Source of the DNA: Pseudobacter ginsenosidimutans
Lineage (GTDB): Bacteria; Bacteroidota; Bacteroidia; Chitinophagales; Chitinophagaceae
Reading direction: 5' to 3'
Assembly: GCF_007970185.1 (NCBI RefSeq)
Contig: NZ_CP042431.1
Location: 7,609,342 to 7,673,341 of the forward strand
DNA length: 64,000 nt
A program made the position numbers and the translations under genes. Positions within the stretch are counted from its first letter, which is position 1. Each line of letters starts with the position of its first letter. This document shows, piece after piece, positions 24,746 through 46,963 of the stretch. The notes beneath the pieces are model-generated. The model worked only from the letters and a program-made list of their open reading frames with translations, had not been told where the DNA came from and made no database searches.

Positions 24746-24891
24746 GCGAAGGGATATGTCAACGCGGCTGAGAAACGAACCAGCGCTTTTTGTTCGTTGA
24801 TGGGCTGTGGGCGGGTTGGATGGGACAGGAGGAATTCTATTGGGGTCTTTCGCTTACGTTTCTTAGGCCGCTTGTGCCATATCCCGTTCGC
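24746..24891 (+). repeat. Palindromic intergenic element, copy C
   Basis: 146 bp. The outer arms are GCGAA-GGGATATG ... CGGC at the left and its near-complement at the right (GCCG ... CATATCCC-GTTCGC). The core is shared with the other four copies: GGCTGAGAAACGAACC then AGCGC, TGATGGGCTGTGGG, GGTTGGATGGG, and TTTCGCTTACGTTTCTTAGGCC. It lies just after ispD in the same orientation. The left arm resembles the ispD 3' end (GCGAA-ATG-GGGATATG). Confidence 0.75.
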
Positions 24892-25504
24892 TCAATCACG
24901 CTGAGAGAGAGATGGTGGTAAAAGTGCAGCAGTTCCTGTGAAATGAAACTGCGGTCCCCGGACTTTGAGAACTTTGATAAATGATATGGACCTGGAATTG
25001 CGTTTTACCAATGTTGCTTTTCAGTGTGCACTTTCCTGAAACAGTTTTTACATTTTTTCTTGATTCAGATTTTCCCTTTGTTGTTTTTAAGATTAAAAGC
25101 CCACTTGATTTCGCATTCCTATTTTTTAGCCCCTGCCTTTTCTGCTCCCACTTTTTCAGTTCTTAATTCCATTAATCCATTATGATTATTTTGGAATTTT
25201 ATTATTCTGTTATTTTGTTATTCTGTTATTCTGTTATCGTTCATTTTTGAGTATTGCATTTTTTACTTTTCCAGGCGTTGATGTTTTGAATTTAGAATAG
25301 CTGTTTCCTTTTCTACTTTCTATTTTCTTCATTGTAATTGTAAAACATCAGGCTCCATTCTTAACCGGGCTTATATCCTCAGCTTCATTTCATCCATCCT
25401 CACAGCACCATTTATCCGGAACACTTCCCCCACCCCTGCTAAATTTCATCAGCCACTCATAACTTTAATACAGCACTGATGCACTCTCAACCTCATGCCG
25501 GCGA
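24892..25504. other. Gene-free stretch between ispD and the FemAB-like gene
   Basis: About 610 bp, AT-rich with many T runs and no plausible gene on either strand. It is flanked by repeat copies C and D. The only structure seen is the 8-bp tandem repeat at 25202-25233. Confidence 0.6.
25202..25233. repeat. 8-bp tandem repeat TTATTCTG, four units
   Basis: TTATTCTG, TTATTTTG, TTATTCTG and TTATTCTG follow without gaps, then a partial unit. It is a possible slippage locus in noncoding DNA. Confidence 0.7.
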
Positions 25505-25638
25505 GGGTTCTGAAAAAACTGGCCTTGCAAACGTAAGCGAAGAAGATCAATGGAATTACCATCGCCCATCCAACCAGCAATAGCCCAACATACAAACCTA
25601 TGCGCCGGTACGTTTCACAGCCAGCGTTTCAGAATCCC
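25505..25638 (-). repeat. Palindromic intergenic element, copy D
   Basis: 134 bp, read on the minus strand. The left arm is GGGATTCTGAAACGCTGGC, and the right arm is its imperfect complement (reverse-complement reading GGGTTCTGAAAAAACTGGC). The core reads GGCTGTGAAACGTACC then GGCGC, TTGGGCTATTGC, GGTTGGATGGGC, CTTCTTCGCTTACGTTTG, CAAGGCC. It sits immediately after the FemAB-like gene in that gene's orientation. Its left arm duplicates the end of the gene (see 25604-25693). Confidence 0.75.
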
Positions 25639-25693
25639 GAGAAGGCACCTGCCGGTACGTTTCACAGCCAGCGTTTCAAAATCCCGAGAAGGC
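25604..25693. repeat. 43-bp direct duplication covering the end of the FemAB-like gene
   Basis: Positions 25604-25646 and 25651-25693 are identical except for one base, separated by 4 bp. The second copy encodes the last residues of the gene (LLGILKRWL and stop). The first copy forms the left arm of palindromic element D. Confidence 0.85.
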
Positions 25694-26600
25694 GAAAGCG
25701 GTTAATGCGGAGAGACGGATAAATTTCCAGACTGGCGCCGAAACTGCTGTAAAAGAAAGCCAGGTTACGGATATCTGAACCTTCAAAGTCCAGCGTAAGC
25801 TCCTCTCCGGCATGCTGATGAATGAAACGATCGATGAGAAAATGAGATGCACCGCTGGTACGGCCATTGGGATGATTGCCCACAAGGATATAACAGGCAC
25901 GATTGTTCGAAAATACGTAGGCACAACTGGCAAGCAGCTGATCATTGACATCAAACACTCCACAGGCAATGGCTTTGCCCTGCTGATGCAATTGATTGAA
26001 GAGCGATTCAAAGTTTTCATAATCGCGGTCGCTGAGATTGGAAATCCCCTGCATCTGGGATTTGGAAAGACTTAGTACCTCGGAAATGGGAATGTCCGTT
26101 GCATAACGATTGTTGAGTTGTTGCGCCTTTTTGATATTGCGCCGGATATTTTCCCGGTAGGCAGATTGAAGTGACTCATAGGGAGCCCTGAGATCCAGGA
26201 CGTAGTTGTTACGAAGGGATATGCTGGTGTTTTTTTGAGGGCCGACATTGGCATGGGCATTGGCCTGGTTGAGCTCGATCTCGATCAGGCGAAACCTTTT
26301 GGGAATGGCAGACAGAAAAGCTTCGATCAGTGAAGGCGTGAGATGTTTCCCGAATACACCCAATTGAGCGGTGAAAGGTGGCTGGTACAGGTAAGCGATC
26401 CCGTATTTACTGTTCCAGGTGAGTGGCATCACCGCTTCGTAATCGCCGAGGACCAGGGCACTCCAGTGCTTGCACATATGGTCCAGGTAAATGCTGTACG
26501 CATAGGGAAGTCCGTTATCAGCCTTTTGGATGACAGCATCCCAGCGCTGAATATCCAGTTCTTGCCGGGTCAGGTATTGTATGGCGGGAAGGGACTGCAT
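25662..26600 (-). CDS. GNAT/FemAB-like acyltransferase
   Basis: 312 residues. It resembles the BioF2-like/FemAB acetyltransferase group: N-terminal WDAVIQKADNGLPYAYSIYLD, central YRENIRRNIKKAQQLN (~150), and a C-terminal GNAT half with GVFDVNDQLLASCAYVF and GRTSGASHFLIDRFI. The substrate is unknown; relatives modify peptidoglycan, polysaccharide or lipid precursors, which would fit the nearby sugar transferase. ATG 26600 is preferred to an in-frame TTG two codons upstream. It follows the M1 peptidase gene by 12 bp. Its 3' end has been duplicated into the adjacent repeat. Confidence 0.75.
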   Translation of the reverse strand: MQSLPAIQYLTRQELDIQRWDAVIQKADNGLPYAYSIYLDHMCKHWSALVLGDYEAVMPLTWNSKYGIAYLYQPPFTAQLGVFGKHLTPSLIEAFLSAIPKRFRLIEIELNQANAHANVGPQKNTSISLRNNYVLDLRAPYESLQSAYRENIRRNIKKAQQLNNRYATDIPISEVLSLSKSQMQGISNLSDRDYENFESLFNQLHQQGKAIACGVFDVNDQLLASCAYVFSNNRACYILVGNHPNGRTSGASHFLIDRFIHQHAGEELTLDFEGSDIRNLAFFYSSFGASLEIYPSLRINRFRLLGILKRWL

Positions 26601-26612
26601 GCTCAACTATAC

Positions 26613-29507
26613 CTAGAACGAATAATAGTTTTTGGTCATCCTGCGCAGATTCAGCCTGTGGATATCGATGCTGAAAGAGATCTTCTTCAGGAACTTGTTT
26701 TCTTCGGGAACCGTTTTGAGATTGTCGCGGAACTCTTTGCTGTATACTACGGGGATATAGATATTGATCAGTTCGCGGTACAGTACCAGCTGTACTCCGC
26801 CCACATAGAGAAATCGACTGGTATAGGCATCTTTCTTCCAGGCTTCGGCATAGGTACCCACGTCCAGGAACAAACGAACAGGTAGTTCAATAGGGAACAT
26901 TTTCGTCGGCAGCGTAGTGTTGAAGTTCATGGATGCAATCCAGTTATCGGATCTTCCCTGAAGGTCCTGGAACAGATCGGTGCGCAGTTTGAGGCCGCCA
27001 TCGCGGATCATGATCTGCTGATTGCCGATGCCCTCCTGTTCATTGCGACCAATGAAATAGTTGCTGTAGGTATAATCTTCGTAACCACGTACAGCCGTAA
27101 GCTTGGGCTGGTACCTGATGGTTCGGAATTCTTTCTCGAGAGTATGACCTCCAATGTATCCGAACTTTGCTGCAAAGGCGCGCACCTGCAAACCACCGCC
27201 GGAACTGTAATTGAGAAAATAATTACCAGTGACGGATGCGCGATAGAAACCATCACCCTGCTGGATCTGTAATTGCGCATCGTAGGGATACAGGGTCCGG
27301 TAATTGGTAACGTTCCAGGTCAGTTGATTGATATAGCTGGTTTTCGTTTCAGCTTTATAGGGATGATAGAGCGAATCCTTGCTGCTCATGGCATAATTGA
27401 AGCCGCGCTCACCGATGATGAAGGTCTTCCATTCGATCCAGTGCTCGATAGGATTGCGGGCCGTTTTGTTACCGAAAGTAATGCGCAGTTGCGGCGTGAA
27501 ACGGTAATAGCCGCCAAACAGTTTATTGTTGTTGCTGTCAACTCCTTCCATCGTGGAAAAACGTGCAGCGCCAACACCGATATCGATCTTCCTGATTTTC
27601 CTGTCGGGCAGAAAGGTATAACCGATCCTTCCCACTCCATTCACCTGCTTACTGCCGAATGCATAGAGCGGTGCAAATACATAACGGAATTTTTGAAAAG
27701 GCGGATTGTAATTATGAATGAGCAGACCTGCCATGAACTTATCATAACTGTTATAACCCAGCGCAGGGAAGAAGTTGATGTAATTCACCTTGTCATTGTC
27801 CTTGAAATTGAACATGAAAGTGGGTTTGAATTTCTTTCTGCCGGAATACGGCGATATGTCCCCCTTGCGGTCCAGCTCATTGAAGAAATTATCCAGGTTG
27901 CGGCCGGATGTCTCTTCCATTATTTTACGAAAGTCCTCAGGCGAAGGATGCCTGAACTGCCATTGTTTGTAATACTCCTGCATGCAGCTATCGAACAGGC
28001 GGGTACCGAGTGTTTTCTGCAGCTCCTGCATCCAGAGACCTGTTTTCATGTAGGCCACTACGGCATAGTTGAGTGGCGTGAAGTCTGCACCTTTGGTGGT
28101 AATGGGCTGGTCCAGCTTGTCCTTTGTAACAACAGACACGAAGAGGCGGGGATCATCTTCCGGAATGCGGCGTGTCATCCAGTTTCCACCGGAATCATTA
28201 TTGAGTTCACCAAAGCGGATATCGTAATAGGTATTGATGCCTTCGTCCATCCAGGGATTATCCCTTTCATTGGTGCCGATAACGCCGTAGAACCAGTTAT
28301 GTCCAACTTCGTGACCGATAAGTTTTTCCAGGTCCGAAGCAGTGCTCACCGGAGAGATACTTGTAATGGTGGGATACTCCATACCACCACTGAAACCCAT
28401 GGGAGTTTCGGCAACACTTACCACATCATAGGGATATTCACCGATCACTTCAGAACGCCAGCGGACCGCTTCTTTCAGCATAGGCAGTCCTCTTTTCCAT
28501 AATTCACTTTTGGAAGGCAGGCGGAATACATTGGCTGTGACCATGCGGCCGGAAGCCAGCTGTATTGTATCGGAATCGAGGACGAAGTCAGGATTGGCGA
28601 ACCAGGCAAAATCGTGTATGCGGTCCTGTTTGAACTGCAAAGTGCGCGTTGGAACAGGTGCATTGGCCTTCGCAGGAAGATCAGGCGGAGGATCGTTGGT
28701 GATGGTGAGCGCCGCTTTTTTGTTCTTGTTCTTATTGAATGAGGAAGATGCTGGTTTCTTCACCGGTTTCTTCTCCATCAGGAAAGGGTGTTTCTTCTTT
28801 TCCACTTTTTTCGGTGCCGGAGCTGAACCGGCCGGAGGAAGATATGATCCCATCACAAGATTGCCGGTGGCGGCAACTGCATAGTATTCGGGAACAGTGA
28901 TGCGAACATCGTAACTGCCGAACTCACTGTAGAATTCTCCCTGGTCGAGATAAGGCATGGGATGCCAGCCCTGTTTGTCGTACACTGCAGGTTTGGGATA
29001 CCATTGTGCAATCTGGTAGGCATGATCTTTCCAGCCGCTCCTGCTGAAAACGCCGGGCAGCTTCACATGGAATGGCGTGGTGATCAGTGTCTGAGCGCCG
29101 GGCGCCAATGGCTGAGGCAACCACACTTTCACCACATCGATAAATTGCGGATGGTCTTCCGTTCTGATACGGGCATTGTTCACGCGGAAATCAAGCCGGT
29201 TGATATACCCACGTTTTTCCATATCCGAAAAATAGAAATCAGTACGGCCGTTCTCCAGCAACTGATCGGAGAAAGCGGTGCGATCGTTCTTATAGGCATT
29301 GGGCCATACATGGAACCAAATGAAATGAAGTGTATCGGGAGAATGATTGATGTACTGCATTTTGAGCATGCCATCGAGCGTATGTTCCTTATCATTCAGA
29401 CTAACGTCGATGGTATAGTGAACTTCCTGTTGCCAGTAGTTGGATTGCGCGTAGAGTGAGGATTGAAGCAGTAAGCACCAGCCAATGAGTAGTAGAAGTC
29501 TGTGCAC
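26613..29507 (-). CDS. M1-family zinc metallopeptidase, exported
   Basis: 964 residues. A signal peptide (HRLLLLIGWCLLLQSSLYAQ) is followed by the M1 N-terminal beta domain (VHYTIDVSLNDKEHTLDG). The catalytic domain has HEVGHNWFYG and, 18 residues after the second His, the third ligand Glu in WMDEGINTY. The ~400-residue C-terminal half is rich in aromatic beta strands, unlike classic aminopeptidase N, and may sit in the outer membrane or be surface-exposed. A Lys/Pro-rich linker (VEKKKHPFLMEKKPVKKPA) interrupts the N-terminal part. GTG 29507 is chosen because AAGG lies 7 bp before it and the signal peptide starts there. Confidence 0.88.
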   Translation of the reverse strand: MHRLLLLIGWCLLLQSSLYAQSNYWQQEVHYTIDVSLNDKEHTLDGMLKMQYINHSPDTLHFIWFHVWPNAYKNDRTAFSDQLLENGRTDFYFSDMEKRGYINRLDFRVNNARIRTEDHPQFIDVVKVWLPQPLAPGAQTLITTPFHVKLPGVFSRSGWKDHAYQIAQWYPKPAVYDKQGWHPMPYLDQGEFYSEFGSYDVRITVPEYYAVAATGNLVMGSYLPPAGSAPAPKKVEKKKHPFLMEKKPVKKPASSSFNKNKNKKAALTITNDPPPDLPAKANAPVPTRTLQFKQDRIHDFAWFANPDFVLDSDTIQLASGRMVTANVFRLPSKSELWKRGLPMLKEAVRWRSEVIGEYPYDVVSVAETPMGFSGGMEYPTITSISPVSTASDLEKLIGHEVGHNWFYGVIGTNERDNPWMDEGINTYYDIRFGELNNDSGGNWMTRRIPEDDPRLFVSVVTKDKLDQPITTKGADFTPLNYAVVAYMKTGLWMQELQKTLGTRLFDSCMQEYYKQWQFRHPSPEDFRKIMEETSGRNLDNFFNELDRKGDISPYSGRKKFKPTFMFNFKDNDKVNYINFFPALGYNSYDKFMAGLLIHNYNPPFQKFRYVFAPLYAFGSKQVNGVGRIGYTFLPDRKIRKIDIGVGAARFSTMEGVDSNNNKLFGGYYRFTPQLRITFGNKTARNPIEHWIEWKTFIIGERGFNYAMSSKDSLYHPYKAETKTSYINQLTWNVTNYRTLYPYDAQLQIQQGDGFYRASVTGNYFLNYSSGGGLQVRAFAAKFGYIGGHTLEKEFRTIRYQPKLTAVRGYEDYTYSNYFIGRNEQEGIGNQQIMIRDGGLKLRTDLFQDLQGRSDNWIASMNFNTTLPTKMFPIELPVRLFLDVGTYAEAWKKDAYTSRFLYVGGVQLVLYRELINIYIPVVYSKEFRDNLKTVPEENKFLKKISFSIDIHRLNLRRMTKNYYSF

Positions 29508-29558
29508 GAACGTACCTTTTATCAAAAATAAGGGATTACAAAGGAGATACAAAGCAAA

Positions 29559-30992
29559 TCACTTGCCCTTGCCCAGAAAGAGGATGCGCAGGGTATGGAG
29601 CATGATCTTGAGATCGATGGCCAGCGAAACATTTTCGATATATGTCAAATCATATTTCATTCTCACCACCATTTCTTCAACGGAGCTGGCATAACCGAAT
29701 TGTACCATTCCCCAGGAAGTGAGGCCTGGTTTCACTTTCAGCAGGTAATTATAATAAGGCGTTTGTTGCTGGATCTGGCGGATATAATACTCTCTTTCAG
29801 GACGTGGTCCTACCAGGCTCATATCGCCTTTGAGGATATTCCATAATTGTGGCAATTCATCTACACGCCACTTGCGCATGATCCTGCCCCAGGAAGTGAT
29901 CCTTGGATCATTGGTATCGGACAATTGCGGTCCATTGGCTTCTGCATGATGGAACATGCTCCTGAACTTGAAAATATGGAATCTCCTTCCTCTGTACCCT
30001 ACCCGTTCCTGTGAGTAGATAACCGGCCCGGCCGAAGAGAGCTTCACCCTGATGGCTACATAGGCCAGGAAGGGGCTCAGGAAAATGAGTCCGGAAATCG
30101 CCACCACTACATCCACCACGCGTTTGATATTCTGTTGCCATTCCGGCATCAGGTCTGTACGTATATCGGAAAGCAGGGCGCCGGTAATATTGCTGGTGCG
30201 TACACTGCCGGAAAGGATATCGAGCGTATCAGGAACGATCTTCACCTCCACATCTTTTTCGCTCAGCACTTCCACTATATGGTTGATCTGTTGTTTTTCA
30301 TTCTTGTCAACCGCAATTACTACCAGTTTGATGCCGCGCTGATCTATCACCTCACTCATATCCTTATACGAACCGAACTGTGGCAGGTATTCCCGGATAC
30401 CGTTGGGCTCCTGCCCTGCCGCCAGGAATCCCTTGTAGTGGAAGCCTGCATTGGCCAAACCTTCGCGTGTTTCCTTGAAGATCCTGGTGGCAACGGAATT
30501 GCCACCGATGAGGAGAGTATTGAAATGCACATTCCCGCGCATGAGCTGTTGCTTCACACGGGAAAGGATCATCAGGCGGCCGGTCCAGGTAAACAGTATC
30601 TGCACGCCGATATAAGTGGCAAGTGCATTGTAAAAGTAGGTATAGTGATGCTGGGGATCGTTGATCACCAGGGCAAAGAAGATCAGCGTACAACCAATGA
30701 GGGAACTGAGTACAGTCAATGCAAACTCGCTCAACCGTGATTTCCGGTAGAGTGACTGGTACGCTCCCAACATTCCCTGGAATACAACCCATCCAATGGG
30801 AATGATCATCAATCCCAACCAGAACCTGTCGTTCAGAAAGATCTTGTTGTTGACGATGATATGCTCATTGAGGAAATACCTTCTGGCGAAATAAAAAACT
30901 ATCCATCCAAGCACAGCTGCAGTATAGTCACTTAGCAGGTACCAGGCACTGTGAATGGTTTTTTCTGATCCATTAAAAGGTTTAGGCAACAA
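29559..30992 (-). CDS. Undecaprenyl-phosphate sugar phosphotransferase
   Basis: 477 residues. Four or five N-terminal membrane helices are followed by a CoA-binding-like Rossmann domain (~155-270, NTLLIGGNSVATRIF). The C-terminal bacterial sugar transferase domain (~285-477) has KRVVDVVVAISGL, SQERVGYRGRRFHIFKFRSM and RVDELPQLWNILKGDMS LVGPRPE. It should transfer a hexose-1-phosphate to undecaprenyl phosphate to start exopolysaccharide or O-antigen synthesis (WcaJ/WbaP type). The start is TTG 30992 or the adjacent TTG 30989, overlapping the end of the oxidoreductase gene by about 10 bp, so the pair is translationally coupled. No other glycosyltransferase is nearby. Confidence 0.9.
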   Translation of the reverse strand: MLPKPFNGSEKTIHSAWYLLSDYTAAVLGWIVFYFARRYFLNEHIIVNNKIFLNDRFWLGLMIIPIGWVVFQGMLGAYQSLYRKSRLSEFALTVLSSLIGCTLIFFALVINDPQHHYTYFYNALATYIGVQILFTWTGRLMILSRVKQQLMRGNVHFNTLLIGGNSVATRIFKETREGLANAGFHYKGFLAAGQEPNGIREYLPQFGSYKDMSEVIDQRGIKLVVIAVDKNEKQQINHIVEVLSEKDVEVKIVPDTLDILSGSVRTSNITGALLSDIRTDLMPEWQQNIKRVVDVVVAISGLIFLSPFLAYVAIRVKLSSAGPVIYSQERVGYRGRRFHIFKFRSMFHHAEANGPQLSDTNDPRITSWGRIMRKWRVDELPQLWNILKGDMSLVGPRPEREYYIRQIQQQTPYYNYLLKVKPGLTSWGMVQFGYASSVEEMVVRMKYDLTYIENVSLAIDLKIMLHTLRILFLGKGK

Positions 30993-31956: not shown

Positions 31957-32060
31957 AATAAAAAATTAATTGTCAAAGATAAACGCTGTGGCCGTTTACA
32001 TAACGGTTTTTTATTACCACGCAGTATGCGGATGTGAATAACTCAGCACATGATGCCGGA

Positions 32061-32843: not shown

Positions 32844-32925
32844 GGACTCATTCCATTTTTTTAGGGTAAAAAATCATGCGTGCTACTTCCGCATATTTTT
32901 CTATCAACGGGATACCTGAAATAAA

Positions 32926-32951
32926 ATTGCCCTGGGAATAAGCAGGGCAAT
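32926..32951 (-). terminator. Rho-independent terminator after the LytTR operon
   Basis: On the minus strand, ATTGCCCTG and CAGGGCAAT pair perfectly around an 8-base loop and are followed by TTTTATTT. The hairpin lies about 150 bp downstream of the LytTR regulator stop (33098) and before the L,D-transpeptidase gene. Confidence 0.75.
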
Positions 32952-35327: not shown

Positions 35328-36365
35328 TTAATAGTTGTCGTTATCATCCTGCTCATCAAATGGCTTGAACTCGAACATATTGTCGAAGATCTCGGAGCCG
35401 CTGCGACCGGTGAGGAGAAAGCCTCTGTCTTTCAGCGTGAATCCGACAGCGCCTTCGCGGGCAGTGCCTTCGAAAGATGTTTTCTTTGTCCAGAGGTCAT
35501 TGGTGGCATCATATTCCCAGGTATCGGAGATCAATGATCCGGCGCGGCCTGTAGCCAGGTACACTTTGGTTCCTATAGTGAATGCCACTGCACCGTAACG
35601 GGCGATATTGGCATAATCATCATCATAACTTTCATCGCTAACATTGGTGAGTTTACGGAGATCAGTCCAGGCGCCCTGTCCGCTGTTACCGGTAGGATCG
35701 AACGACTGAAGATCATTCAACGCTTCGCCATTGTTGTTGCCACTGCATACATAGGCTTTGCCATTTATGACGAAAGCCACAGCCTGTGAACGTTTACGTC
35801 CGCGGATACTGGCTTTTTCCGTCCAGGTTTTGCCGGAAGGATTGAATTCCCAGCAATCTGACATTGCGCTCGTATTATAACCGGTAGCGATATAACCTTT
35901 ATCATTAAGCGTAAATGCCACTGCATTGCGACGGGGATCACCGGGGAAAGGATCGAGCTCTGTCCATTTGTCGAGCGCCGGATCATATTCCCAGAAATCG
36001 TTCAGCAATTTATTGGCGGGGCCATTGAATCCGCAGGCCACATATGCTTTGCCACCGGCAGTGAAAGCAACGGCCCCGCGGCGCATTTCGCCGGGGAAGT
36101 CGGCTACAGGCTCCCAGTAGCCGAAGTCGAGGTCAAGCCGGTAAAACTTATTGCTGTACTGTCCGTTCGTTGCAAAAAGCCCTGTTCCCACATATGCTTT
36201 GTTGCCTATCACAAATGAAACCGCTTCACTCCTGGGGTCACCCCTGAAATCTTCGCTGCGCACCCAGTTACCGACCAGGTCGGAATCATCGTCGGAGCTG
36301 TTTTTAGAGCAGGCAGATAGCATGAACAGAGAAGAAAGAATGATCAGGAAAACCGGATGTTTCAT
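35328..36365 (-). CDS. Kelch-repeat lipoprotein
   Basis: 345 residues. Lipobox MLSAC (Cys19) and a Ser/Asp-rich linker precede six kelch-type blades, each with a [R]xxAVxFxxxxKxYxxxG strand pair followed by a W-containing strand (for example FWEYDPALDKWTELD). A closed beta-propeller on the cell surface is likely. The function is not evident. The frame extends 13 codons upstream, but ATG 36365 directly precedes the signal peptide. Confidence 0.85.
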   Translation of the reverse strand: MKHPVFLIILSSLFMLSACSKNSSDDDSDLVGNWVRSEDFRGDPRSEAVSFVIGNKAYVGTGLFATNGQYSNKFYRLDLDFGYWEPVADFPGEMRRGAVAFTAGGKAYVACGFNGPANKLLNDFWEYDPALDKWTELDPFPGDPRRNAVAFTLNDKGYIATGYNTSAMSDCWEFNPSGKTWTEKASIRGRKRSQAVAFVINGKAYVCSGNNNGEALNDLQSFDPTGNSGQGAWTDLRKLTNVSDESYDDDYANIARYGAVAFTIGTKVYLATGRAGSLISDTWEYDATNDLWTKKTSFEGTAREGAVGFTLKDRGFLLTGRSGSEIFDNMFEFKPFDEQDDNDNY

Positions 36366-36844
36366 TTGAGTAAATTTTGCACAAAGTATCTGGGGGTTAC
36401 GCAAACAATATGATAAAATAGATGGAGGGTGGAATGAAATCGACTAAAAGGGTGATTTTGTCTTTATGGGCGGGGGCAAAGAAGGGGTGGGTTTGGACGG
36501 GCTGTGAAACAAACCAACGCTTTTTTTATTTATTGGGCGGTGGTAGGTGGGATGGGCGGTGGAGCTGAGCTGTACTGTGGAGCTTTTGTTTCGAAGGCCC
36601 GCACAAACCCACCCACTTCTTTGCATGGCACACTGAGAAAGCAAAAGATAAAATCCCCTTTTGTGATTTCATTCTTGAGTGGAGAGAGGGGTACGGGTGC
36701 GTCAGCGAGATGAATAGAAATAGACAAGCAATATGAGGGGCGGGTGTGAATTCGGAGATAGAAAATGGAATTCTGCCGATTTTATTGCAGGGCTGATATA
36801 TAATAACAAAATGCACCAAATAGTGGCGGATATATTGCGCACAA
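36366..36844. other. Divergent gene-free region holding repeat copy E
   Basis: 479 bp between the divergent kelch and DUF4270 genes. It contains palindromic element E (36476-36624). The rest carries no plausible gene. Promoters for both flanking genes must lie here, but no clean TAnnTTTG box was identified. Confidence 0.55.
36476..36624 (+). repeat. Palindromic intergenic element, copy E
   Basis: 149 bp. The left arm GCAAAGAAG-GGGTGGGTTTG, then GACGGGC, pairs with the right arm (reverse-complement reading GCAAAGAAGTGGGTGGGTTT, then GTGCGGGCC). The core reads GGCTGTGAAACAAACC then AACGC, TATTGGGCGGTGG, GGTGGGATGGGCGG and GCTTTTGTTTCGAAGGCC. Unlike the other copies it is not directly downstream of a gene. 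Confidence 0.75.
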
Positions 36845-38200
36845 ATGAACAACCCAGGAATGATCACGCATATTTACGCCCCTCGCAATATTTGTTGGCT
36901 CATTGTTTTTTGTTGTATCGGTTTTGTGGCTTGTCAGAAAAAAGAAATACAGTTTGGCACCGGAATGCAGGATAGCTTTACAAGGCTCATTACAGTAGAT
37001 ACTTTTACCCCTTTTCTTTCTACTGTAGTGCTGGACTCATTCCCTACCTCAGGAACCAATGTGCTGTTCGTAGGCAGAACGGAAGACCCGGTAATGGGAC
37101 CTACCATCGCGCAAACCTTCTTCCAGCTTGGATTACCGGCCGCTGCCCAAAATGCGGAAATCCCGGATGATGCGGTATATGATTCACTGGTGCTTGTGCT
37201 GAAACCGAATAATTCCTGGTACGGCGATACTTCAAAACCAATTTCTTTCACCGCCTATGAAATGGCAGAACAGACAGACTATACCTATTCCAGCAGGATC
37301 TGGAATACCAGCAGCTTTGGATGGCTGCCATCAGCTCTTGCTTCGGTGAACCGGTCGCTCAGCCCGGCAAGGGATTCACTGGAGCTGAAGATCAGGAATG
37401 ATAAAGGATCGGAAATGTTCCAGAAGATCCGGGATAAAGATGTCGCCTTCCAGGATGTGGATTCCTGGCTCAGCTATTTCAAGGGCATCACCATCAAAAC
37501 CAATGCAGGCGATAACGGTGCCGTGTATGCGTTTAAAACAGACAGCGCTACTGTTATGCGGATTCACTATCATACCACATGGCCTTATTTCGAAAAACAT
37601 ACTATCGACTTCTACCTCACCCGCAATGAATACCAGTTCAACCAGATCCTCATCAACAGGACCGGCACCCCGCTGGAGAAAAAGAACGACGGACAGGAAG
37701 AATACTTTCCGGATGAAACACATCCTTATGCATTTTCTCAAACAGGCACAGGCGTAATGCTTAAAATAAAATTCCCCAGCCTCCAGGACATCAAAACCCT
37801 CGGCAAGACCATTAAATTATTGCAGGCAGTTCTGGTGCTGAAACCTGTTGAAGGTAGTTTCGAACAGTACACTTTTCCACTTTGTTCCAGCCTCTACATG
37901 GTACAGACCAATGCCACCAATATCATCGGAGACCAGATGACCGATATAACGGGACAGAACCCACTTTCAGCCGTACCTTATATCGATGATGCATACAGAC
38001 TGAACACCAATTACAGTTTTGATATCACACATTATATCTCCTACCTGCTCACAATGAACAACAGCGCGGAAATGGGCATGTTTGCGCTGGAAGAAAGTCC
38101 AGGTTCCGCCACACGCCTCAACCGGGCAGTGATCGGTAACAGGCTGAACCAGCAATACACCTCCCAACTCAAACTCACGCTTTTGACCACTACCGAATAA
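36845..38200 (+). CDS. DUF4270 domain lipoprotein
   Basis: 451 residues. The signal peptide ends in a lipobox (GFVAC, Cys30) followed by QKKEIQFGTGM. The rest agrees with DUF4270: an early VDTFTPFLSTVVLDSFPTSG, NVLFVGRTEDPVMG, PDDAVYDSLVLVLKP and a C-terminal NRAVIGNRLN segment. DUF4270 proteins are Bacteroidota cell-surface lipoproteins of unknown biochemical role. The next gene begins 7 bp after its stop, so the two form an operon. Confidence 0.85.
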   Translation: MNNPGMITHIYAPRNICWLIVFCCIGFVACQKKEIQFGTGMQDSFTRLITVDTFTPFLSTVVLDSFPTSGTNVLFVGRTEDPVMGPTIAQTFFQLGLPAAAQNAEIPDDAVYDSLVLVLKPNNSWYGDTSKPISFTAYEMAEQTDYTYSSRIWNTSSFGWLPSALASVNRSLSPARDSLELKIRNDKGSEMFQKIRDKDVAFQDVDSWLSYFKGITIKTNAGDNGAVYAFKTDSATVMRIHYHTTWPYFEKHTIDFYLTRNEYQFNQILINRTGTPLEKKNDGQEEYFPDETHPYAFSQTGTGVMLKIKFPSLQDIKTLGKTIKLLQAVLVLKPVEGSFEQYTFPLCSSLYMVQTNATNIIGDQMTDITGQNPLSAVPYIDDAYRLNTNYSFDITHYISYLLTMNNSAEMGMFALEESPGSATRLNRAVIGNRLNQQYTSQLKLTLLTTTE

Positions 38201-39458: not shown

Positions 39459-39493
39459 TTTGATATAGCAGGATGTTGTCTCCCTGTGAAATC

Positions 39494-39520
39494 AAAAACC
39501 CCGTATTGCTACGGGGTTTT
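39494..39520. terminator. Bidirectional terminator between convergent genes
   Basis: AAAAACCCCGTA and TACGGGGTTTT form a symmetric GC stem with A-tract and T-tract on opposite sides. It can therefore end both the barrel gene (stop 39458, plus strand) and PEP synthase (stop 39542, minus strand). Confidence 0.9.
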
Positions 39521-39541
39521 GTTCATTATTACATGATTCGT

Positions 39542-41977
39542 TTATTGTGCAACCACTGCTTTCGCTTCGATGGCGCTGATGGCTTTGATGGTCTTGATCA
39601 CAGAGTCCGGTGTAACGGAGATACTATCGATCCCCCTTTCCACCAGGAACTGTGCAAAATCAGGGAAGTCTGAAGGTCCCTGTCCGCAGATGCCCACTTT
39701 TACTTTACATTCTTTGGCAGTGTCTATGAGCATGCTGATCATCCTTTTCACAGCATCATTGCGTTCGTCGTAGAGATGTGCTACGAGTGCGGAATCACGG
39801 TCGAGGCCCAGCGTGAGCTGGGTGAGGTCGTTGGAGCCGATGGAGAAGCCATCGATATGCTGCGCAAATTCTCTCGCCATAAGGATATTGGAAGGAAGCT
39901 CTGCCATGAGGTAGATCTCCAGTCCATCCTTACCCTGTACCAGTCCGAATTCCTTCATCGTTTCCTTCACTTTCAGCAGCTCCGATACAGTTCTGCAGAA
40001 AGGTATCATCACTACCACATTGGAGAGGCCCATTTCCTCACGAACGCGCTGGATAGCTTTACATTCCAGTCCGAATGCGGGTTTGTAGCTCTCGGAATAG
40101 TAGCGGGAAGCGCCACGCCATCCGATCATCGGGTTCTCCTCATGCGGTTCGAAATATTTACCGCCGAGCAGATTGAAGTATTCATTGCTCTTGAAGTCGG
40201 AGAAACGAACGATCACTTTATTGGGATAGAAAGCCGAAGCGATCTTGGCGATACCATAAGAAAGTTTCCTGATGAAGAACTCTTCTTCATTGGCGTATCC
40301 TTTGGTGAGTTTTTCGATGGTGCGTGTGAGCTCGGGATCATTCAACTCTTTATGCTGCAACAATGCCAGCGGGTGAACGCCGATATAATTGTTGATGATG
40401 AACTCTTCGCGCGCCAGTCCTACCCCACGGTTGGGGATATGCGAAAAACGGAATGCCAGTGCTGGCGATGCCACGTTCAGCATGAGCGCTGTATCGGTTT
40501 GCGGGAGATCGTCGAGGGAAGTTTCGTTGACTTCATAATCGAGTATTCCGCTATACACGAAACCTTCATCGCCTTCCGCGCAGGAGATGGTGATAGCCTG
40601 ACCTTCCTGGAGGATCTCTGTGGCATTGCCACAACCTACGATGGCCGGAACGCCCATCTCGCGCGCCACGATGGCGGCGTGACAAGTCCTTCCACCCTTA
40701 TTGGTAACGATGGCAGATGCTTTCTTCATGATCGGCTCCCAGTCCGGGTCCGTCATGTCGGTTACCAGTACATCGCCTTCCTTGAATTCATGTCCTTCTT
40801 CCACGCGTTTGTCGAGGGAGAACATGATGCTGACCTTGCCGGCGCCGATCTTATCACCAACGGCAATTCCTTTCACGATGGGTTTGGCGTCTTCAGGCTT
40901 GTTCTTCATCACATACTCTGTGATGGTATTGTGTTGCTTGCGCGAGTGAATGGTTTCCGGGCGGGCCTGCACAATGAAGAGTTCCTGGGAAAGTCCGTCC
41001 AGCGCCCATTCCACGTCCATAGGGCACCAGTAGTTCTTGATCTTGCTGTAGTACTGTTCGATGATGGCCACCCATCCGGCAAGCTTCAGGATGTTCTCAT
41101 CGGAAAGACAAAAACGGTACTGCGCAGAACGTTCTGTTGGGATGATGCGTACGCGCTCATCAGGATCATCTCCATACACCATCTTCTGGTCCTTTACGCC
41201 GAGCTTTTTCTCGATGATGGATTTGTATCCCTTTTCCAGCGTGGGCTTGAACACGATGAATTCATCAGGAGATACGCTGCCCTGCACTACCATTTCACCC
41301 AGTCCGTAAGAACCGTTGATCACGATCACATCTTTGAAACCGCTCTCGGTATCGAGTGAGAAAGCAACGCCGGAACTTCCAAGGTCTGAACGGACCATTT
41401 TCTGTACGCAGACGGAAAGGCCTACGGAGAAGTGATCGTACTTGAAAGTTTCGCGATAGCTGATGGCGCGGTCCGTGAAGAGTGATGCAAAACAGTTACG
41501 AACTGCATCGATGAGCGCGGCTGGTCCGCGTACGTTGAGATAAGTTTCCTGCTGACCTGCAAAGGATGCATCGGGCAGATCTTCAGCGGTGGCGGAAGAA
41601 CGCACGGCCACGTCTGTACCTTGCTGATCATACTTTGCAGAGAGCGTGTAGTATGCTTCGATGATCTGCTGCCCCAGTTCCGGAGGGAATTTGGAGTTAC
41701 GCACCAGGTTCCGGACCTGCAAACCTGCACGGCGAAGCGATTCCACGTTGTTGTAATCGATCTCTTTCACCAGCGCCCGGATGGTTGAGTCGAGATTGTT
41801 GAATTTGATAAACTCATTGTAGGCGTTCACTGTGATGACAAAACCTCCGGGAATGTTTACACCAAGATTGGTGAGGTTTTGTAGCATCTCGCCCAGGGAA
41901 GCATTCTTGCCACCGACCAGGTCGATGTCGTGAATGCCTACCTCATGAAGTAAGAGAATACTGCTGGTTGTTTTCAT
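39542..41977 (-). CDS. ppsA: Phosphoenolpyruvate synthase
   Basis: 811 residues from ATG 41977 (MKTTSSILLLHEVGIHDIDL). It converts pyruvate, ATP and water to PEP, AMP and phosphate in gluconeogenesis. The N-terminal ATP-binding domain has VGGKNASLGEM (~22-32) and AVRSSATAEDLPDASFAGQQ. The swivelling phosphohistidine domain has TNKGGRTCHAAIVAREMG with the catalytic His. The C-terminal PEP/pyruvate TIM barrel has GFSIGSNDLTQLTLGLDRD and CGQGPSDFPDF. Length and motifs fit PEP synthase better than pyruvate phosphate dikinase. It is monocistronic. Confidence 0.93.
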   Translation of the reverse strand: MKTTSSILLLHEVGIHDIDLVGGKNASLGEMLQNLTNLGVNIPGGFVITVNAYNEFIKFNNLDSTIRALVKEIDYNNVESLRRAGLQVRNLVRNSKFPPELGQQIIEAYYTLSAKYDQQGTDVAVRSSATAEDLPDASFAGQQETYLNVRGPAALIDAVRNCFASLFTDRAISYRETFKYDHFSVGLSVCVQKMVRSDLGSSGVAFSLDTESGFKDVIVINGSYGLGEMVVQGSVSPDEFIVFKPTLEKGYKSIIEKKLGVKDQKMVYGDDPDERVRIIPTERSAQYRFCLSDENILKLAGWVAIIEQYYSKIKNYWCPMDVEWALDGLSQELFIVQARPETIHSRKQHNTITEYVMKNKPEDAKPIVKGIAVGDKIGAGKVSIMFSLDKRVEEGHEFKEGDVLVTDMTDPDWEPIMKKASAIVTNKGGRTCHAAIVAREMGVPAIVGCGNATEILQEGQAITISCAEGDEGFVYSGILDYEVNETSLDDLPQTDTALMLNVASPALAFRFSHIPNRGVGLAREEFIINNYIGVHPLALLQHKELNDPELTRTIEKLTKGYANEEEFFIRKLSYGIAKIASAFYPNKVIVRFSDFKSNEYFNLLGGKYFEPHEENPMIGWRGASRYYSESYKPAFGLECKAIQRVREEMGLSNVVVMIPFCRTVSELLKVKETMKEFGLVQGKDGLEIYLMAELPSNILMAREFAQHIDGFSIGSNDLTQLTLGLDRDSALVAHLYDERNDAVKRMISMLIDTAKECKVKVGICGQGPSDFPDFAQFLVERGIDSISVTPDSVIKTIKAISAIEAKAVVAQ

Positions 41978-42524
41978 CTGAAAAAAATGTTGTTGTCTGA
42001 TGACAGGATCTGTTTGGCAATCCAAAAGTAAGGTAACGATCGTTAGTCTTATGGTGGAACTTATCAATATTTTTTTGAATGCGTCCAGAAGACACGTAAC
42101 AACCGGTTGCAAAGTGATCCGGACAAGGCAGAGCGGGATTTTCCGCAAACCGGCCATAGAGAAGAATGAACAGGTTATGTAATCGATATAAATAACCCGG
42201 AATAGATCGCATATTCATTAACGTTACTAAAGGCCTAAAGGGACATATCTATAATTTTATTACATGATTATTTTTTTTGCTGCCTGATAAGTGTTTCCAT
42301 CTATCGTTTTGCAATCCACCATTCAACCCCAATGGGCCTTTCCGGCCATCACCTCCTTCCAAACCCGTAATGCTTCTGCACCCTTCAAACCCTTACCAGA
42401 CATAAGCCGCATCATTCCTGCACTTCCACATCATCCCCATTAATTATACACATCCTGTGATTAAGTTAAATTGGAAAACGCTCCCCCGGATGCTACGTTT
42501 GCAGTCAGCTCTTGTACGCAATTT
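41978..42524. other. Divergent intergenic region between ppsA and the nrd riboswitch
   Basis: About 550 bp with no credible gene. It must hold the ppsA promoter (minus strand) and the nrdBA promoter (plus strand). A near-match to the -7 box, TAAATTGG, occurs about 55 bp before the riboswitch, too weak to call. Confidence 0.5.
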
Positions 42525-42661
42525 GTACCGGTTCCCGGACCTGCTCGCAGCCTCCGGGAGATTTCAGGGGAACCATGTGTGATTCATGGACTGTTGCGCA
42601 ACTGTAAGTTTACCGCCCTCAAAAAGCGGACTACAAACAAGTCAGAATACCTGCCGGTATT
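42525..42661 (+). promoter_or_regulatory. Cobalamin riboswitch upstream of nrdBA
   Basis: The B12 box AAGTCAGAATACCTGCC lies at 42639-42655 and is closed by P1 (TACCGG near 42526 with CCGGTA at 42654-42659). Upstream are the conserved core AGGGGAACC, the hairpin CCATG-TGTGATT-CATGG and GCGCAACTGTAAG, with a perfect P-stem TCCCGGA/TCCGGGA. The 146-base leader between riboswitch and nrdB shows no clear terminator, so control is probably at translation initiation. Binding of adenosylcobalamin should repress the B12-independent ribonucleotide reductase downstream. Confidence 0.92.
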
Positions 42662-42807
42662 GATCTGTGCTGAATCCTTCGCATTAAAGGTAAATGCATA
42701 ACTATGATAGATGCCTGTACTTTATTCCAGGAATGAAGTAGAGGGCATATTATCGCCGTCACTTACCCTCACTGCGATCATTAAAATGTGAATTTAAAAG
42801 CGATAGT

Positions 42808-43782
42808 ATGCAACACGAAAACGAAATTCTTTTACAGGAAAACAAAGATCGCTTTGTGATCCTTCCCATCAACTATCCCAGAGTCTGGGAAATGTACAAG
42901 AAGCATGAAGCCAGTTTCTGGACAGCTGAAGAGATAGACCTGAGTGGCGACCTGAAAGACTGGGCTGCCCTGAACGACGGAGAGCGTCATTTCATCTCCC
43001 ACGTATTGGCATTCTTCGCAGCCAGCGATGGCATCGTGAACGAAAACCTGGCCGTTAACTTCATGTCTGAAGTGCAACTCCCCGAAGCACGCTGCTTCTA
43101 CGGCTTCCAGATCATGATGGAAAATATCCATTCTGAAACTTATGCCCTCCTGATCGATACATATGTAAAAGACCCACAGGAAAAACACCATCTCTTCCAC
43201 GCCATCGATACAGTACCCGCAGTGAAAAAGAAAGCCGAATGGGCGCTCCGCTGGATCGAGAACGGCTCCTTTGCAGAAAGACTGGTCGCATTCGCCGCCG
43301 TTGAAGGCATCTTCTTCTCCGGCTCCTTCTGCTCCATCTTCTGGATGAAAAAACGCGGCCTCATGCCAGGCCTCACTTTCTCCAATGAACTGATCAGTCG
43401 CGATGAAGGCCTCCACTGTGAATTCGCCTGTCTTCTTTACAGCATGCTCAACAACCAGCTTCCCAAAGAACAGGTGTACAAGATCATCGGAGACGCTGTC
43501 CGCATCGAAAAAGAATTCGTCACTGAAGCACTACCCGTTGACCTCATCGGCATGAATGCCCGCCTCATGCAGCAATACATCGAGTTCGTTGCAGATCGCT
43601 GGCTCATGGAACTGGGATGTGAAAAGATGTTCAACGCCACCAACCCATTCGACTTCATGGAAATGATCTCGCTCGAAGGCAAAACCAACTTCTTCGAAAA
43701 ACGCGTGGGTGATTACCAGAAAGCAGGTGTAATGGGAGGCAACAAAGAAAATAATTCCTTCTCCCTGGATGAAGATTTCTAA
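42808..43782 (+). CDS. nrdB: Class Ia ribonucleotide reductase, beta subunit (R2)
   Basis: 324 residues. It holds the di-iron tyrosyl radical used by NrdA. The sequence is strikingly like the eukaryotic R2 type: [18 protein letters not shown]-like block, [19 protein letters not shown] with metal ligands Glu and His and the radical Tyr, [26 protein letters not shown] and C-terminal [11 protein letters not shown]. It comes first in the operon, behind the cobalamin riboswitch. nrdA starts 52 bp after its stop. Confidence 0.97.
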
Positions 43783-43834
43783 GCAATACCTGATAAACTA
43801 ACCATACTTACTACCACCATTAATATCTCAGCAC

Positions 43835-46222
43835 ATGTTTGTAGTTAAAAGAAACGGAAAAAAAGAATCCGTCAAATTCGATAAGATCACGGCACGCGTT
43901 GAAAAACTCTGCTACGGTCTCGACAGACGGTTCGTGAATTCCATCGATGTGGCCAAGAAAGTGATCGAAGGATTATACGATGGCGTTACCACCACTGAAC
44001 TGGACAACCTCGCTGCAGAAACTGCCGCCTCACTCACCGTGAAGCACCCGGACTATGCACTGCTCGCCAGCCGCATCGCCATCAGTAACCTGCACAAGAA
44101 TACTATCAAGAGCTTCTCAGATACCATGAAGCTCCTCTACGAATGCAGGGACGCCAAAGCCGGCAAAGCCGCACCCCTCCTCGCAGACGACGTATGGGAA
44201 GTGATCCAGCAACACCACGAACTGCTGGACTCCACCATCATCTACGACCGCGATTATGCATTCGATTATTTCGGTTTCAAAACACTCGAGAAATCATACC
44301 TCCTCAAAGTGGACGGTAAAGTAGCAGAACGCCCGCAGCATATGTACATGCGCGTTGCCCTCGGTATCCACAAACAGGATATCGATGCCGCTATCAAAAC
44401 CTACCATATGATGAGCGAACGCTGGTTCACACACGCTACGCCCACACTCTTCAATGCAGGTACACCCAAACCACAGATGAGCTCCTGCTTCCTCCTCACC
44501 ATGAAGGACGATAGCATCGATGGTATCTACGACACCCTCAAACAAACAGCCAAGATCTCCCAGAGCGCCGGCGGTATCGGTCTGTCTATTCATGGCATCC
44601 GCGCCACCGGCTCCTATATCGGCGGCACCAACGGCACCAGCAACGGCATCATCCCCATGCTGCGCGTTTACAACGACACTGCCCGCTACGTAGATCAGGG
44701 CGGCGGCAAACGTAAAGGCGCATTCGCCATCTACCTCGAACCATGGCACGCAGACGTATTCGAATTCCTCGACCTCCGCAAGAACCACGGTAAAGAAGAA
44801 CTCCGCGCACGCGACCTCTTCTACGCCCTCTGGATCCCGGACCTCTTCATGAAACGTGTGGAAGAGAACGGCGACTGGAGCCTGTTCTGCCCCCACGAAG
44901 CGCCAGGCCTCCACGAATGCTGGGGAGATGAATTCGAAAAACTGTACAATCAGTATGAACAGGAAAAGCGTATGCGCAAGACCGTTAAAGCGCAGGACCT
45001 CTGGTTTGCAATCCTGGACGCACAGATCGAAACAGGAACGCCTTACCTGCTGTACAAGGATTCCGCCAACCGCAAATCCAACCAGCAGAACCTCGGCACC
45101 ATCAAGAGCTCCAACCTCTGCACAGAGATCCTGGAATACACTTCACCTGATGAAGTAGCAGTTTGTAACCTCGCCTCCCTCGCACTGCCCCGCTTTGTGA
45201 TCGATGGCAAGTTCGACCACAACAAACTCTATGAGATCACCTACGAGGCAACAAAGAACCTCAACAAGATCATCGACTATAACTATTACCCTGTAAAGGA
45301 AGCTGAAACTTCCAACCTCCGCCACAGGCCTATCGGTCTCGGCGTTCAGGGACTGGCCGATGTATTCATCCTGCTCCGCATGCCTTTCGAAAGCGATGAA
45401 GCCAAACAACTGAACAAAGACATCTTCGAAACCATCTACTTCGCCGCCATGACAGCCTCCAAAGACCTGGCAAAAGTAGAAGGCGCATACGAAACCTTTG
45501 CCGGCTCACCCGCTTCCAAAGGGCAGTTCCAGTTCGACATGTGGGGCGTTGAACCAAGTCTCCGCTGGGACTGGTACAGCCTCAAAGCTGAAGTGATGAA
45601 GCATGGCGTTCGCAACTCATTGCTGGTTGCCCCCATGCCCACCGCCTCCACTTCTCAGATCCTCGGCAACAACGAATGCTTTGAACCGTACACTTCCAAC
45701 ATCTACGTTCGTCGCGTATTGAGCGGAGAGTTCGTAGTTGTGAACAAGCACCTCCTGAAAGATCTGATCGAGCTCGGCCTCTGGAACGATGACATGAAGA
45801 ACAGGATCATCGCGCACAACGGGTCCATCCAAAAGATCGATGGCATTCCCGACAATATCAAGGAAATCTACAAAACAGTCTGGGAGATCAAACAACGTAA
45901 CCTGATCGATATGGCTGCCGACCGTGGCGCTTATATCTGCCAGAGCCAATCCCTCAACCTGTTCGTGGATACGCCCACCAATGGCAAACTGACTTCCATG
46001 CACTTCTATGCCTGGAAGCGTGGTCTCAAAACCGGCATGTACTATCTCCGTACAAAAGCCGCCACTCAGGCCGTACAGTTCACTGTTGAAAAACAAGGTG
46101 GAAAGATGGTGGAGCCGCTCACAGACAAACACTCACTGAAGGTGATCGAAGGCGCCAACGACGTGGAAGCACAGGGTCCTACCTGCACCATGGAAGAAGG
46201 CTGCGTAACCTGCAGTGCATAA
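43835..46222 (+). CDS. nrdA: Class Ia ribonucleotide reductase, alpha subunit (R1)
   Basis: 795 residues. An N-terminal ATP-cone ([21 protein letters not shown]) gives overall activity regulation by ATP/dATP. The active site carries the redox Cys in MSSCFLLT, the thiyl-radical site SSNLCTEI and the partner Cys in [11 protein letters not shown]-terminal shuttle cysteines are in EEGCVTCSA. It reduces ribonucleoside diphosphates with NrdB. The stop is followed after ~75 bp by a 15-bp tandem repeat and palindromic element A. Confidence 0.97.
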
Positions 46223-46298
46223 TACCTGGTTATTTATCATCGACCCATACCCGTCATTGGCATCAGCTGGTGGCGGGTTTCCTTTTTACGCCTCAGTT

Positions 46299-46343
46299 GC
46301 AAAAGCTGGGCGTGCAAAAGCTGGTGGTGCAAAAGCTGGTATG
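46299..46343 (+). repeat. 15-bp tandem repeat, three units
   Basis: GCAAAAGCTGG recurs at 46299, 46314 and 46329 with a 15-bp period. The third unit is the left arm of palindromic element A. Reverse-strand copies of the motif occur near 46545 and 46953. Confidence 0.75.
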
Positions 46344-46474
46344 ATCACCGGCTGGAAAACAAACCGGCGCAGGAGAATATTAATTGGGCGGTTGTGCATG
46401 GGAGTTAGCTTTAGTAATGGGCCAGGCTTCTTCGCTTATGTTTTCAAGGCCGGCTTATCATACCAGCGTTTTGC
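46329..46474 (+). repeat. Palindromic intergenic element, copy A
   Basis: 146 bp. The left arm GCAAAAGCTGGTATGAT, then CACCGGC, pairs with the right arm (reverse-complement reading GCAAAACGCTGGTATGAT, then AAGCCGGCC). The core reads GGCTGGAAAACAAACC then GGCGC, AATTGGGCGGTTG, and CTTCTTCGCTTATGTTTTC, AAGGCC. It follows nrdA in the same orientation and forms an inverted pair with copy B. Confidence 0.8.
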
Positions 46475-46814
46475 ACATCACGATGATAAGGCTGGGCCGT
46501 AAATACATTTTGAAATGTACACATGCATCGCCGAACATATCTTTACCAGCTTTTGACTCAAAAGCTGAATAAAAAAGATGCATCCAATAACTGTGCAATA
46601 TAACTGTGCAATGAAACTGCAATTGTGAATATTCCTTGAATTGCGTAGATGACCTCCATTGTGCGGATCCTCTCCACTGTACAGAAGACCAATGCTCAGA
46701 TACACTCAATTGCATCACGCAAGCATAATGGAAAATGACAATGATGCAATGATGCCTTCAATAGTAGTTCGCCTTCAATATAGCTTTACGGCCATGCCCT
46801 GTGCATCGTGCTGC
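46475..46814. other. Gene-free spacer between repeat copies A and B
   Basis: 340 bp with no plausible gene. It holds a short inverted repeat (AGCTTTT at 46548-46554, AAAAGCT at 46561-46567) related to the element arms, and a direct repeat of ACTGTGCAAT at 46591 and 46604. Confidence 0.55.
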
Positions 46815-46963
46815 GCAAAACGCTGGTATGATAAGCCGGCCTTGAAAACATAAGCGATAAAGCCGAACAGCATTACCACAGCCCAATCCAACCAACTCAA
46901 AAGCCCATCAAACATCCTCCCGCGCCGGTTTGTTTTCCAGCCGGTGATCATACCAGCTTTTGC
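46815..46963 (-). repeat. Palindromic intergenic element, copy B
   Basis: 149 bp, inverted relative to A. Its outer ~40 bp at each end are nearly identical to A, while the middle differs (on the minus strand TGATGGGCTTTTGAG, TTGGTTGGATTGGGC, then TTTATCGCTTATG, TTTTCAAGGCC). It lies just after the ABC ATPase gene (stop 47022) and in that gene's orientation. Confidence 0.8.

What the first reader, a model, noticed from the sequence alone, without database searches (positions are those of the whole stretch)
24746..46963. A five-copy family of 134-149 bp palindromic intergenic elements, apparently undescribed
Copies at 24746-24891, 25505-25638, 36476-36624, 46329-46474 and 46815-46963 share ordered blocks: GGCTGnnAAACnnACC then a GCGC-like end, a middle TTGGGC plus GGTTGGATGGG, and TTCGCTTAYGTTT followed by AGGCC. 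Each copy ends in long inverted repeats. Five copies in 64 kb implies hundreds per genome. I know of no named Bacteroidota element with this layout. A structured 3'-UTR RNA, a MITE/REP-like element moved in trans, or a nucleoid or processing signal are all possible.
Basis: partly seen in the sequence, partly recalled or inferred. Interest (0 to 1): 0.8.

Follow-up and report, generated by a model that had tools for sequence, protein, structure and literature searches.

The report
Paired DNA-hairpin elements between genes
A bacterial genome carries about a hundred large DNA hairpins, many of them in inward-facing pairs between genes; they stay at the same places in related species while their sequences change, which makes them an apparently undescribed case of DNA shape outlasting DNA sequence.

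Summary
The five copies are real; the 7.8-Mb genome holds 113 strong ones at 75 loci. Thirty-eight loci are pairs within 2.5 kb, all facing inward. Each copy is a long hairpin: a conserved G-rich core, and outer arms that differ between loci yet stay self-complementary (92.0% of 2,808 stem cells paired, 67.6% shuffled). In the outer arms G·U and A·C mismatches are equally common, so the arms look maintained as DNA, not RNA. Twenty of 20 sampled G004 loci have a counterpart here, one a remnant. In G001, 14 of 23 sampled loci lie in the same gaps but mostly carry another subfamily: orthologous cores match no better (48.9%) than unrelated ones (48.4%), copies within a species 57-58%. No Rfam match, REP tag or adjacent transposase was found. 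Best reading: an old REPIN-like but far larger non-autonomous DNA hairpin unit, spread by an unidentified single-strand-DNA enzyme, now fixed, its arms repaired by template switching. A 3'-UTR RNA is disfavoured. New variant of a known kind, with unexplained concerted turnover.

The parts
24746..24891 (+). copy c1: 5' arm, GGCTG..AAAC, G-rich core, TTCGCTTACGTTT..AGGCC, 3' arm
   Evidence: 105.5 bits
24924..24932 (+). tail motif GTGCAGCAG of c1
   Evidence: such a motif lies within 100 nt 3' of 56 of 113 copies, controls 2, 1, 0
25505..25638 (-). copy c2, mate of c1
   Evidence: 108.4 bits
25476..25484 (-). tail motif GTGCATCAG of c2
   Evidence: read on the - strand
24746..25638 (.). pair unit c1/c2: two inward-facing elements in the gap between ORFs 24024-24704 (+) and 25662-26606 (-)
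36476..36624 (+). copy c3 (single), between ORFs 35328-36404 (-) and 36845-38200 (+)
   Evidence: 102.2 bits
36697..36705 (+). tail motif GTGCGTCAG of c3; GTGC[AG]TCAG lies within 300 nt 3' of 17 of 113 copies
46329..46474 (+). copy c4
   Evidence: 108.4 bits
46815..46963 (-). copy c5, mate of c4, nearly identical arms
   Evidence: 124.5 bits; pairs I1, I2
46329..46963 (.). pair unit c4/c5 between convergent ORFs 43835-46222 (+) and 47022-47957 (-); present in G004 and G002, absent from G001, where about 126 bp lie between the aligned gene blocks

Best explanation
This is an old family of non-autonomous DNA elements whose unit is one or, typically, two inward-facing hairpins around a loosely conserved spacer; it works like an outsized REPIN. 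Shown: hairpin arms stay complementary while their sequence changes, also at one and the same locus; pairs face inward; sites are shared between species; elements suffer far fewer indels than their spacers. Inferred: in an ancestor the units were copied into short intergenic gaps by an enzyme acting on folded single-stranded DNA. They are now essentially fixed. Arms are re-perfected when replication switches template inside the hairpin, which changes both sides at once. The G-rich core is held to a consensus by a trans-acting protein, or homogenised between copies, so that the set of one species drifts together.
For: Covariation: 92.0% of 2,808 stem cells paired in 113 copies against 67.6% shuffled and 38-53% slid; 691 against 205 cells changed on both sides (the alignment was fitted to the model). 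DNA level in the outer arms: G·U about equal to A·C. Same-locus compensation, strict count: 17 two-sided Watson-Crick-keeping changes where 0.57 is expected for independent sites (G000-G004, 34 elements) and 77 where 6.38 is expected (G000-G002, 25 elements); 8 and 42 of them are transversion-type, which a G·U intermediate cannot give. One matched insertion in both arms (L163/L096). Template switching as a source of such changes is published (PMC8794818, abstract and opening seen). Pairing: 38 inward, 0 outward, 0 tandem within 2.5 kb. Age: 20 of 20 sampled G004 loci have a G000 counterpart, one a remnant. Constraint: elements 86.9% identical with 1.2 gap columns per 100 aligned, spacers 79.7% with 29.2 (15 pairs). 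Empty-like gaps: 17 bp in G005 where G000 and G001 have a pair; about 126 bp in G001 at c4/c5.
Against: No mobilising enzyme is linked: a Y1-type gene and a RAYT-like gene are in all six genomes, including two without elements, and no element lies within the fetched 1.5 kb around them; in G000 and G002 the nearest known element is about 2.7 kb from the RAYT-like gene, a weak hint the other way. Spacers are mostly unlike between loci, unexpected if whole units were copied recently. 37 of 75 loci hold a single element, and three long 'pairs' (L061, L097, L126) enclose an ORF of 125-200 aa. No target-site duplication was found. No insertion newer than the G000-G004 split was seen, so mobility is inferred. 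Near-core pairs favour U·G on the + strand (102 and 24 against 0 and 2 A·C at two positions; 10 and 8 against 0 and 0 in G001), which fits an RNA or a fixed sequence there. In 2 of 15 pairs the aligned spacer letters are more identical than the element.
Confidence: 0.5

Rival explanations
1. Host-function site: each hairpin is a chromosomal binding site (topoisomerase, nucleoid or barrier protein) kept by selection at gene edges; cores shift in concert because they co-evolve with the protein.
For: Fixed positions, fewer indels than spacers, concerted core shift; convergent gaps are 18 of 38 pairs and divergent 2; two-tier quadruplex pattern in the core on + in 72 of 113 and on - in 0.
Against: Two same-genus species give no R1 or R2 match at the thresholds used; pairs also lie in 18 codirectional gaps; no protein identified.
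Confidence: 0.25
2. Structured RNA or transcription-linked element: a 3' hairpin acting in termination or mRNA stability.
For: Fold z-scores -3.15, -5.35, -7.82 for three copies; 54 of 76 paired elements face a gene end; U·G-rich near-core pairs on the + strand.
Against: No wobble excess in the outer arms; T-run upstream in 61 of 113, consistent with a terminator already passed; 22 of 76 point away from a gene start; no Rfam match above gathering score.
Confidence: 0.12
3. Classical MITE derived from an insertion sequence, with independent insertion of species-specific families into the same preferred gaps.
For: Orthologous cores are no more alike than unrelated ones between G000 and G001; distances from the gene ends differ at L090/L191; placement after T-runs suggests target preference.
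Against: Outer arms are not conserved in sequence, so there are no shared terminal repeats; divergence of orthologous cores is graded, 79.8%, 68.3%, then 48.9% (different alignments); c1 and its G001 counterpart have similar arms.
Confidence: 0.13

Closest known systems
REPIN / REP doublets with RAYT transposases (PMC3116915, abstract seen)
   Same: High copy, extragenic, palindromic, inverted doublets proposed as the unit; said to persist for millions of years (PMC8049555, start of abstract and passages)
   Different: Each half is about 130-150 nt, not 20-40 bp; 115-889 bp between mates; no GTAG or CGTC enrichment at the ends; no element within 1.5 kb of the RAYT-like gene
GTAG- and CGTC-tagged REPs and TIRtrons (PMC3733652, abstract and passages seen)
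   Same: Palindromic families, some flanking tyrosine transposases
   Different: Tag motifs not enriched; arms differ from locus to locus; no flanked transposase found
ERIC, YPAL and similar 120-170 bp intergenic palindromes (recalled, not tested)
   Same: Size class, intergenic imperfect palindromes
   Different: As recalled, those are conserved in sequence throughout; here the outer arms are free in sequence and only the pairing is kept
Integron attC sites (recalled, not tested)
   Same: Structure kept while arm sequence varies; folded single strand is the active form
   Different: As recalled, attC ends are conserved and the centre variable; here it is the reverse, and copies are dispersed rather than in an array

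Membership tests
REP / REPIN | short palindrome of 20-40 bp | tested here: not met
   model of 133 positions with 15-nt stretches of longer arms on both sides
REP / REPIN | unpaired GTAG or CGTC tag at the stem foot | tested here: not met
   in the 45-nt 5' and 3' flanks of 113 copies GTAG in 17 and 8 against 21.2 and 17.0 expected, CGTC in 6 and 5 against 12.9 and 17.6; foot position itself is fuzzy
REP / REPIN | inverted doublets | tested here: met
   38 of 38 pairs inward-facing; 37 of 75 loci single
REP / REPIN | linked RAYT gene | tested here: not met
   one RAYT-like gene with a close match in each of six genomes, also in the two without elements; no R1 match better than E 0.69 and no R2 match in 1.5-kb flanks; nearest known element about 2.7 kb in G000 and G002
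MITE | conserved terminal inverted repeats | tested here: not met
   outer arm columns not conserved in sequence
MITE | target-site duplication | tested here: inconclusive
   two empty-like sites, too diverged to place the ends
MITE | parent insertion sequence | not tested
   no ISfinder library; of transposases only Y1 types were searched
Rfam RNA families | match at the gathering score | tested here: not met
   only a cobalamin riboswitch in the window; four other element loci gave only sub-gathering matches, one of them over an element: MIR2646, 40.2 bits against 245
cis-acting structured RNA | wobble-tolerant covariation on one strand | tested here: inconclusive
   outer arms: G·U equal to A·C; near-core pairs: U·G strongly favoured at two positions in each subfamily

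The most novel reading that the evidence does not exclude
About a hundred dispersed intergenic DNA hairpins form a genome-wide system in which location and pairing are inherited while the core sequence of the whole set turns over together. That would mean a trans-acting partner reads folded DNA at fixed chromosomal sites and co-evolves with all of them: a structure-coded chromosome landmark rather than a mobile repeat.
Probability: 0.22. Interest if true: 0.85.

Novelty: new variant of a known kind. Interest (0 to 1): 0.62.

Why it matters
The family separates three things usually confounded: keeping a place, keeping a shape and keeping a sequence. It gives a natural test of template switching as the source of compensatory changes in bacteria, with many loci and graded relatives. 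It also warns that covariation alone, which here would pass as strong proof of an RNA, can arise from DNA-level hairpins. If the concerted core turnover reflects a binding partner, it points to an unknown chromosome-organising factor in this group.

Tried and rejected
RAYT-like or Y1 gene as mobiliser: in all six genomes, no element within 1.5 kb; set aside, not excluded.

Coding content of spacers: ORFs of 70 aa or more were listed for the 38 pairs; by eye no protein recurs, but no comparison was run. Whole-unit homology of spacers: 53 hits between 75 sequences, the longest 136 nt at 75%. Missing mates of single copies as another subfamily: R2 over L061-L132 and the window (all 75 loci, three of them through the window) gave 110 matches and no new mate. 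A third subfamily in G003 and G005: no R2 match better than E 0.34 in 400 kb of each; the hairpin scan found 2 and 9 other repeats, and saw only 4 of 12 strong copies in the G000 control stretch, so it is weak.

Counts that I replaced. The first same-locus count (47 and 60 two-sided changes) and its clustering test contain alignment-register artefacts seen; the strict recount is (G004: 1,029 unchanged, 17 two-sided, 49 one-sided and 2 two-change mismatches, 162 other, 17 unaligned, 3 two-sided outside the fold; G002: 568, 77, 49, 15, 267, 4, 38). Locus L165/L132 was left out of the G004 set; of the 20 G002 loci, 13 plus L137 were used, L219 and L220 were overlooked, and L217, L218, L225, L226 and L230 had no flank match. 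An early lenient arm alignment (111 of 113 copies) gave G·U 411 and A·C 214, against my reading; it ran into non-arm sequence and misplaced anchors, so I used the model-based count (whole stem G·U 174, A·C 51, with 126 of the G·U at two near-core positions). In checking, L178/L064, counted as orthologous, proved to lie in different gaps (coordinates); without it the figures are those (14 loci, 22 elements).

Full report
What is there. The window holds five related palindromic elements. The 3' motif occurs 86 times in the own genome at up to 2 mismatches and never in the reversed control. A covariance model from 32 copies (R1) finds 113 strong copies and two marginal ones. They fall into 75 loci: 38 pairs, 18 single + and 19 single -. 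All 38 pairs face inward, with 115 to 889 bp between the model hits; no outward or tandem pair lies within 2.5 kb. Three of the longest pairs (L061, L097, L126) enclose an ORF of 125-200 aa, so they may be neighbours rather than one unit.

Anatomy. Reading 5' to 3': an outer arm free in sequence, GGCTG, a short stem around AAAC, a core of about 80 nt rich in G and T, TTCGCTTAYGTTT, AGGCC, and the complementary outer arm. In 56 of 113 copies GTGC[AG][AGT]CA follows within 100 nt, against 2, 1 and 0 in three controls. The core has a two-tier quadruplex pattern on the + strand in 72 of 113 and on the - strand in none. A run of five T lies within 70 nt upstream in 61 of 113 (A: 17), in 43 of 69 where a gene within 150 nt reads towards the element and in 12 of 29 where it reads away.

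Pairing is kept, sequence is not. On the 113-copy alignment 92.0% of 2,808 stem cells are standard pairs; the shuffled mean is 67.6% and slid controls give 38-53% (the alignment was fitted to the model). In the first 14 pairs of the outer arm there are 43 G·U and 45 A·C (summed from the per-pair list). Over the whole stem G·U is 174 and A·C 51, because two near-core positions hold 126 U·G. In the G001 alignment G·U is 35 and A·C 28, with 18 of the G·U at two near-core positions. So the outer arms show no wobble preference, while the base of the core does. At orthologous loci, with each species folded on its own, two-sided changes that keep a Watson-Crick pair number 17 in 34 elements (G000-G004) and 77 in 25 elements (G000-G002); independent sites would give 0.57 and 6.38. 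One-sided mismatches number 49 and 49; among all mismatch states G·U is 13 and 14, A·C 11 and 12. This looks like DNA-level correction; template switching is a published mechanism for such changes (PMC8794818, abstract and opening seen).

Place is kept. Nineteen of 20 fetched G004 loci, chosen among the best-scoring, match G000 element loci; the twentieth (L152) matches a G000 remnant that lacks part of the core. Between G000 and G004 the elements are 86.9% identical with 1.2 gap columns per 100 aligned, spacers 79.7% with 29.2, flanks 88.6% with 4.4 (15 pairs); in 2 of the 15 the aligned spacer is more identical than the element.

Turnover. In G001, 37 of 40 copies aligned score 79-125 bits with R2, and three score 47-54; R2 was built from 28 of these copies. 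Of 23 distinct G001 loci sampled, 14 lie between the same genes as a G000 element locus (flank coordinates, rechecked). Over 22 orthologous elements the core identity is 48.9%, against 48.4% for 978 unrelated cross-species pairs, 57.0% within G000 and 58.4% within G001. This alignment was made with R2, which may align R1-type cores poorly and so lower the cross-species values. Between G000 and its nearer relatives the orthologous cores are 79.8% (G004, 34 elements) and 68.3% (G002, 12 elements) identical, non-orthologous ones 65-68%. Mates of one pair are slightly more alike, 72.2% (49 pairs). At the window locus G001 has one R1-type mate, the counterpart of c1 with a similar arm, and one R2-type mate. 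This is the pattern of concerted evolution or of co-evolution with a partner; re-insertion into the same gaps is not excluded.

Distribution. R1 matches in 4 of 39 relatives including the own genome (E<=0.001), 5 of 394 genomes of the family including one of another genus (G171, three matches) and 1 of 395 genomes of the phylum, the own one. R2 matches in 5 of 394, one of them weak. G003 and G005, of the same genus, have no match. An exact scan of the 3' motif over the species-genome collection gave 78 stretches, 73 in the two named relatives and five scattered singles that look like chance (records near the own genome may be left out); viral contigs gave none.

Origin and function. Gaps without a pair are short: 17 bp between stop codons in G005 at the L090 locus and about 126 bp between aligned blocks in G001 at c4/c5. 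This suggests gain of whole units, though loss in G001 is possible. Flanking genes of the 38 pairs are convergent in 18, codirectional in 18 and divergent in 2 (simple ORF rule). A Y1-type gene and a RAYT-like gene have matches in all six genomes; no element lies in the 1.5 kb around them, though one lies about 2.7 kb from the RAYT-like gene in G000 and G002 (positions). No enzyme or partner can be named.

Literature. Searches for palindromic repeats, RAYT and Bacteroidetes, the genus names, quasipalindromes, REPIN persistence, Chitinophaga with repeats and convergent-gene palindromes listed no title or abstract describing this family; only the open library is covered and the listings were short.

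Noticed in passing
window 42512-42672 +: Cobalamin riboswitch, 53.2 bits, the only Rfam match at gathering score in the window.
   Followed up: no
L152:1620-1710 and many places in G000, e.g. C1:7561219-7561358, 6902122-6902260, 3752068-3752178: A second repeat family: short hairpins (CTTCGCC..GGCGAAG, CTCGCC..GGCGAG), often as two inverted copies 7-25 nt apart, with matches in G001 and G002 too. It looks like an ordinary REP family and may be the true partner of the RAYT-like gene.
   Followed up: partly
L165:2935-3066 (G004) against L132:551-724 (G000): A second G004 element seems to have lost about 70 bp of its core in G000, like the L152 remnant; inferred from the alignment coordinates.
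   Followed up: no
window 25604-25693: The 5' part of c2 is duplicated in tandem (43 nt, 98% identical, starts 47 nt apart) and reaches the end of the neighbouring ORF 25662-26606 (-).
   Followed up: no
window 46299-46339: GCAAAAGCTGG repeated three times just before and into the 5' arm of c4.
   Followed up: no
L171:1435-1863 (match at G000:C1:7347186-7347515 -): A 142-aa Y1 transposase-like ORF lies between an aroB-like and a DAHP-synthase/chorismate-mutase-like gene (names judged from the translations, G000 only); a full-length Y1 match exists in each of six genomes, as if domesticated.
   Followed up: partly
L343:5892-6005 and L351:30-139 (G003): Another palindromic repeat, GGGTGTATC..GATACACCC with AAGGCCTTC, in a species that gave no match to the present family.
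   Followed up: no
L175:739-869 (G171): A clear R1-type element with long complementary arms in a genome of another genus of the family; three matches in all.
   Followed up: partly
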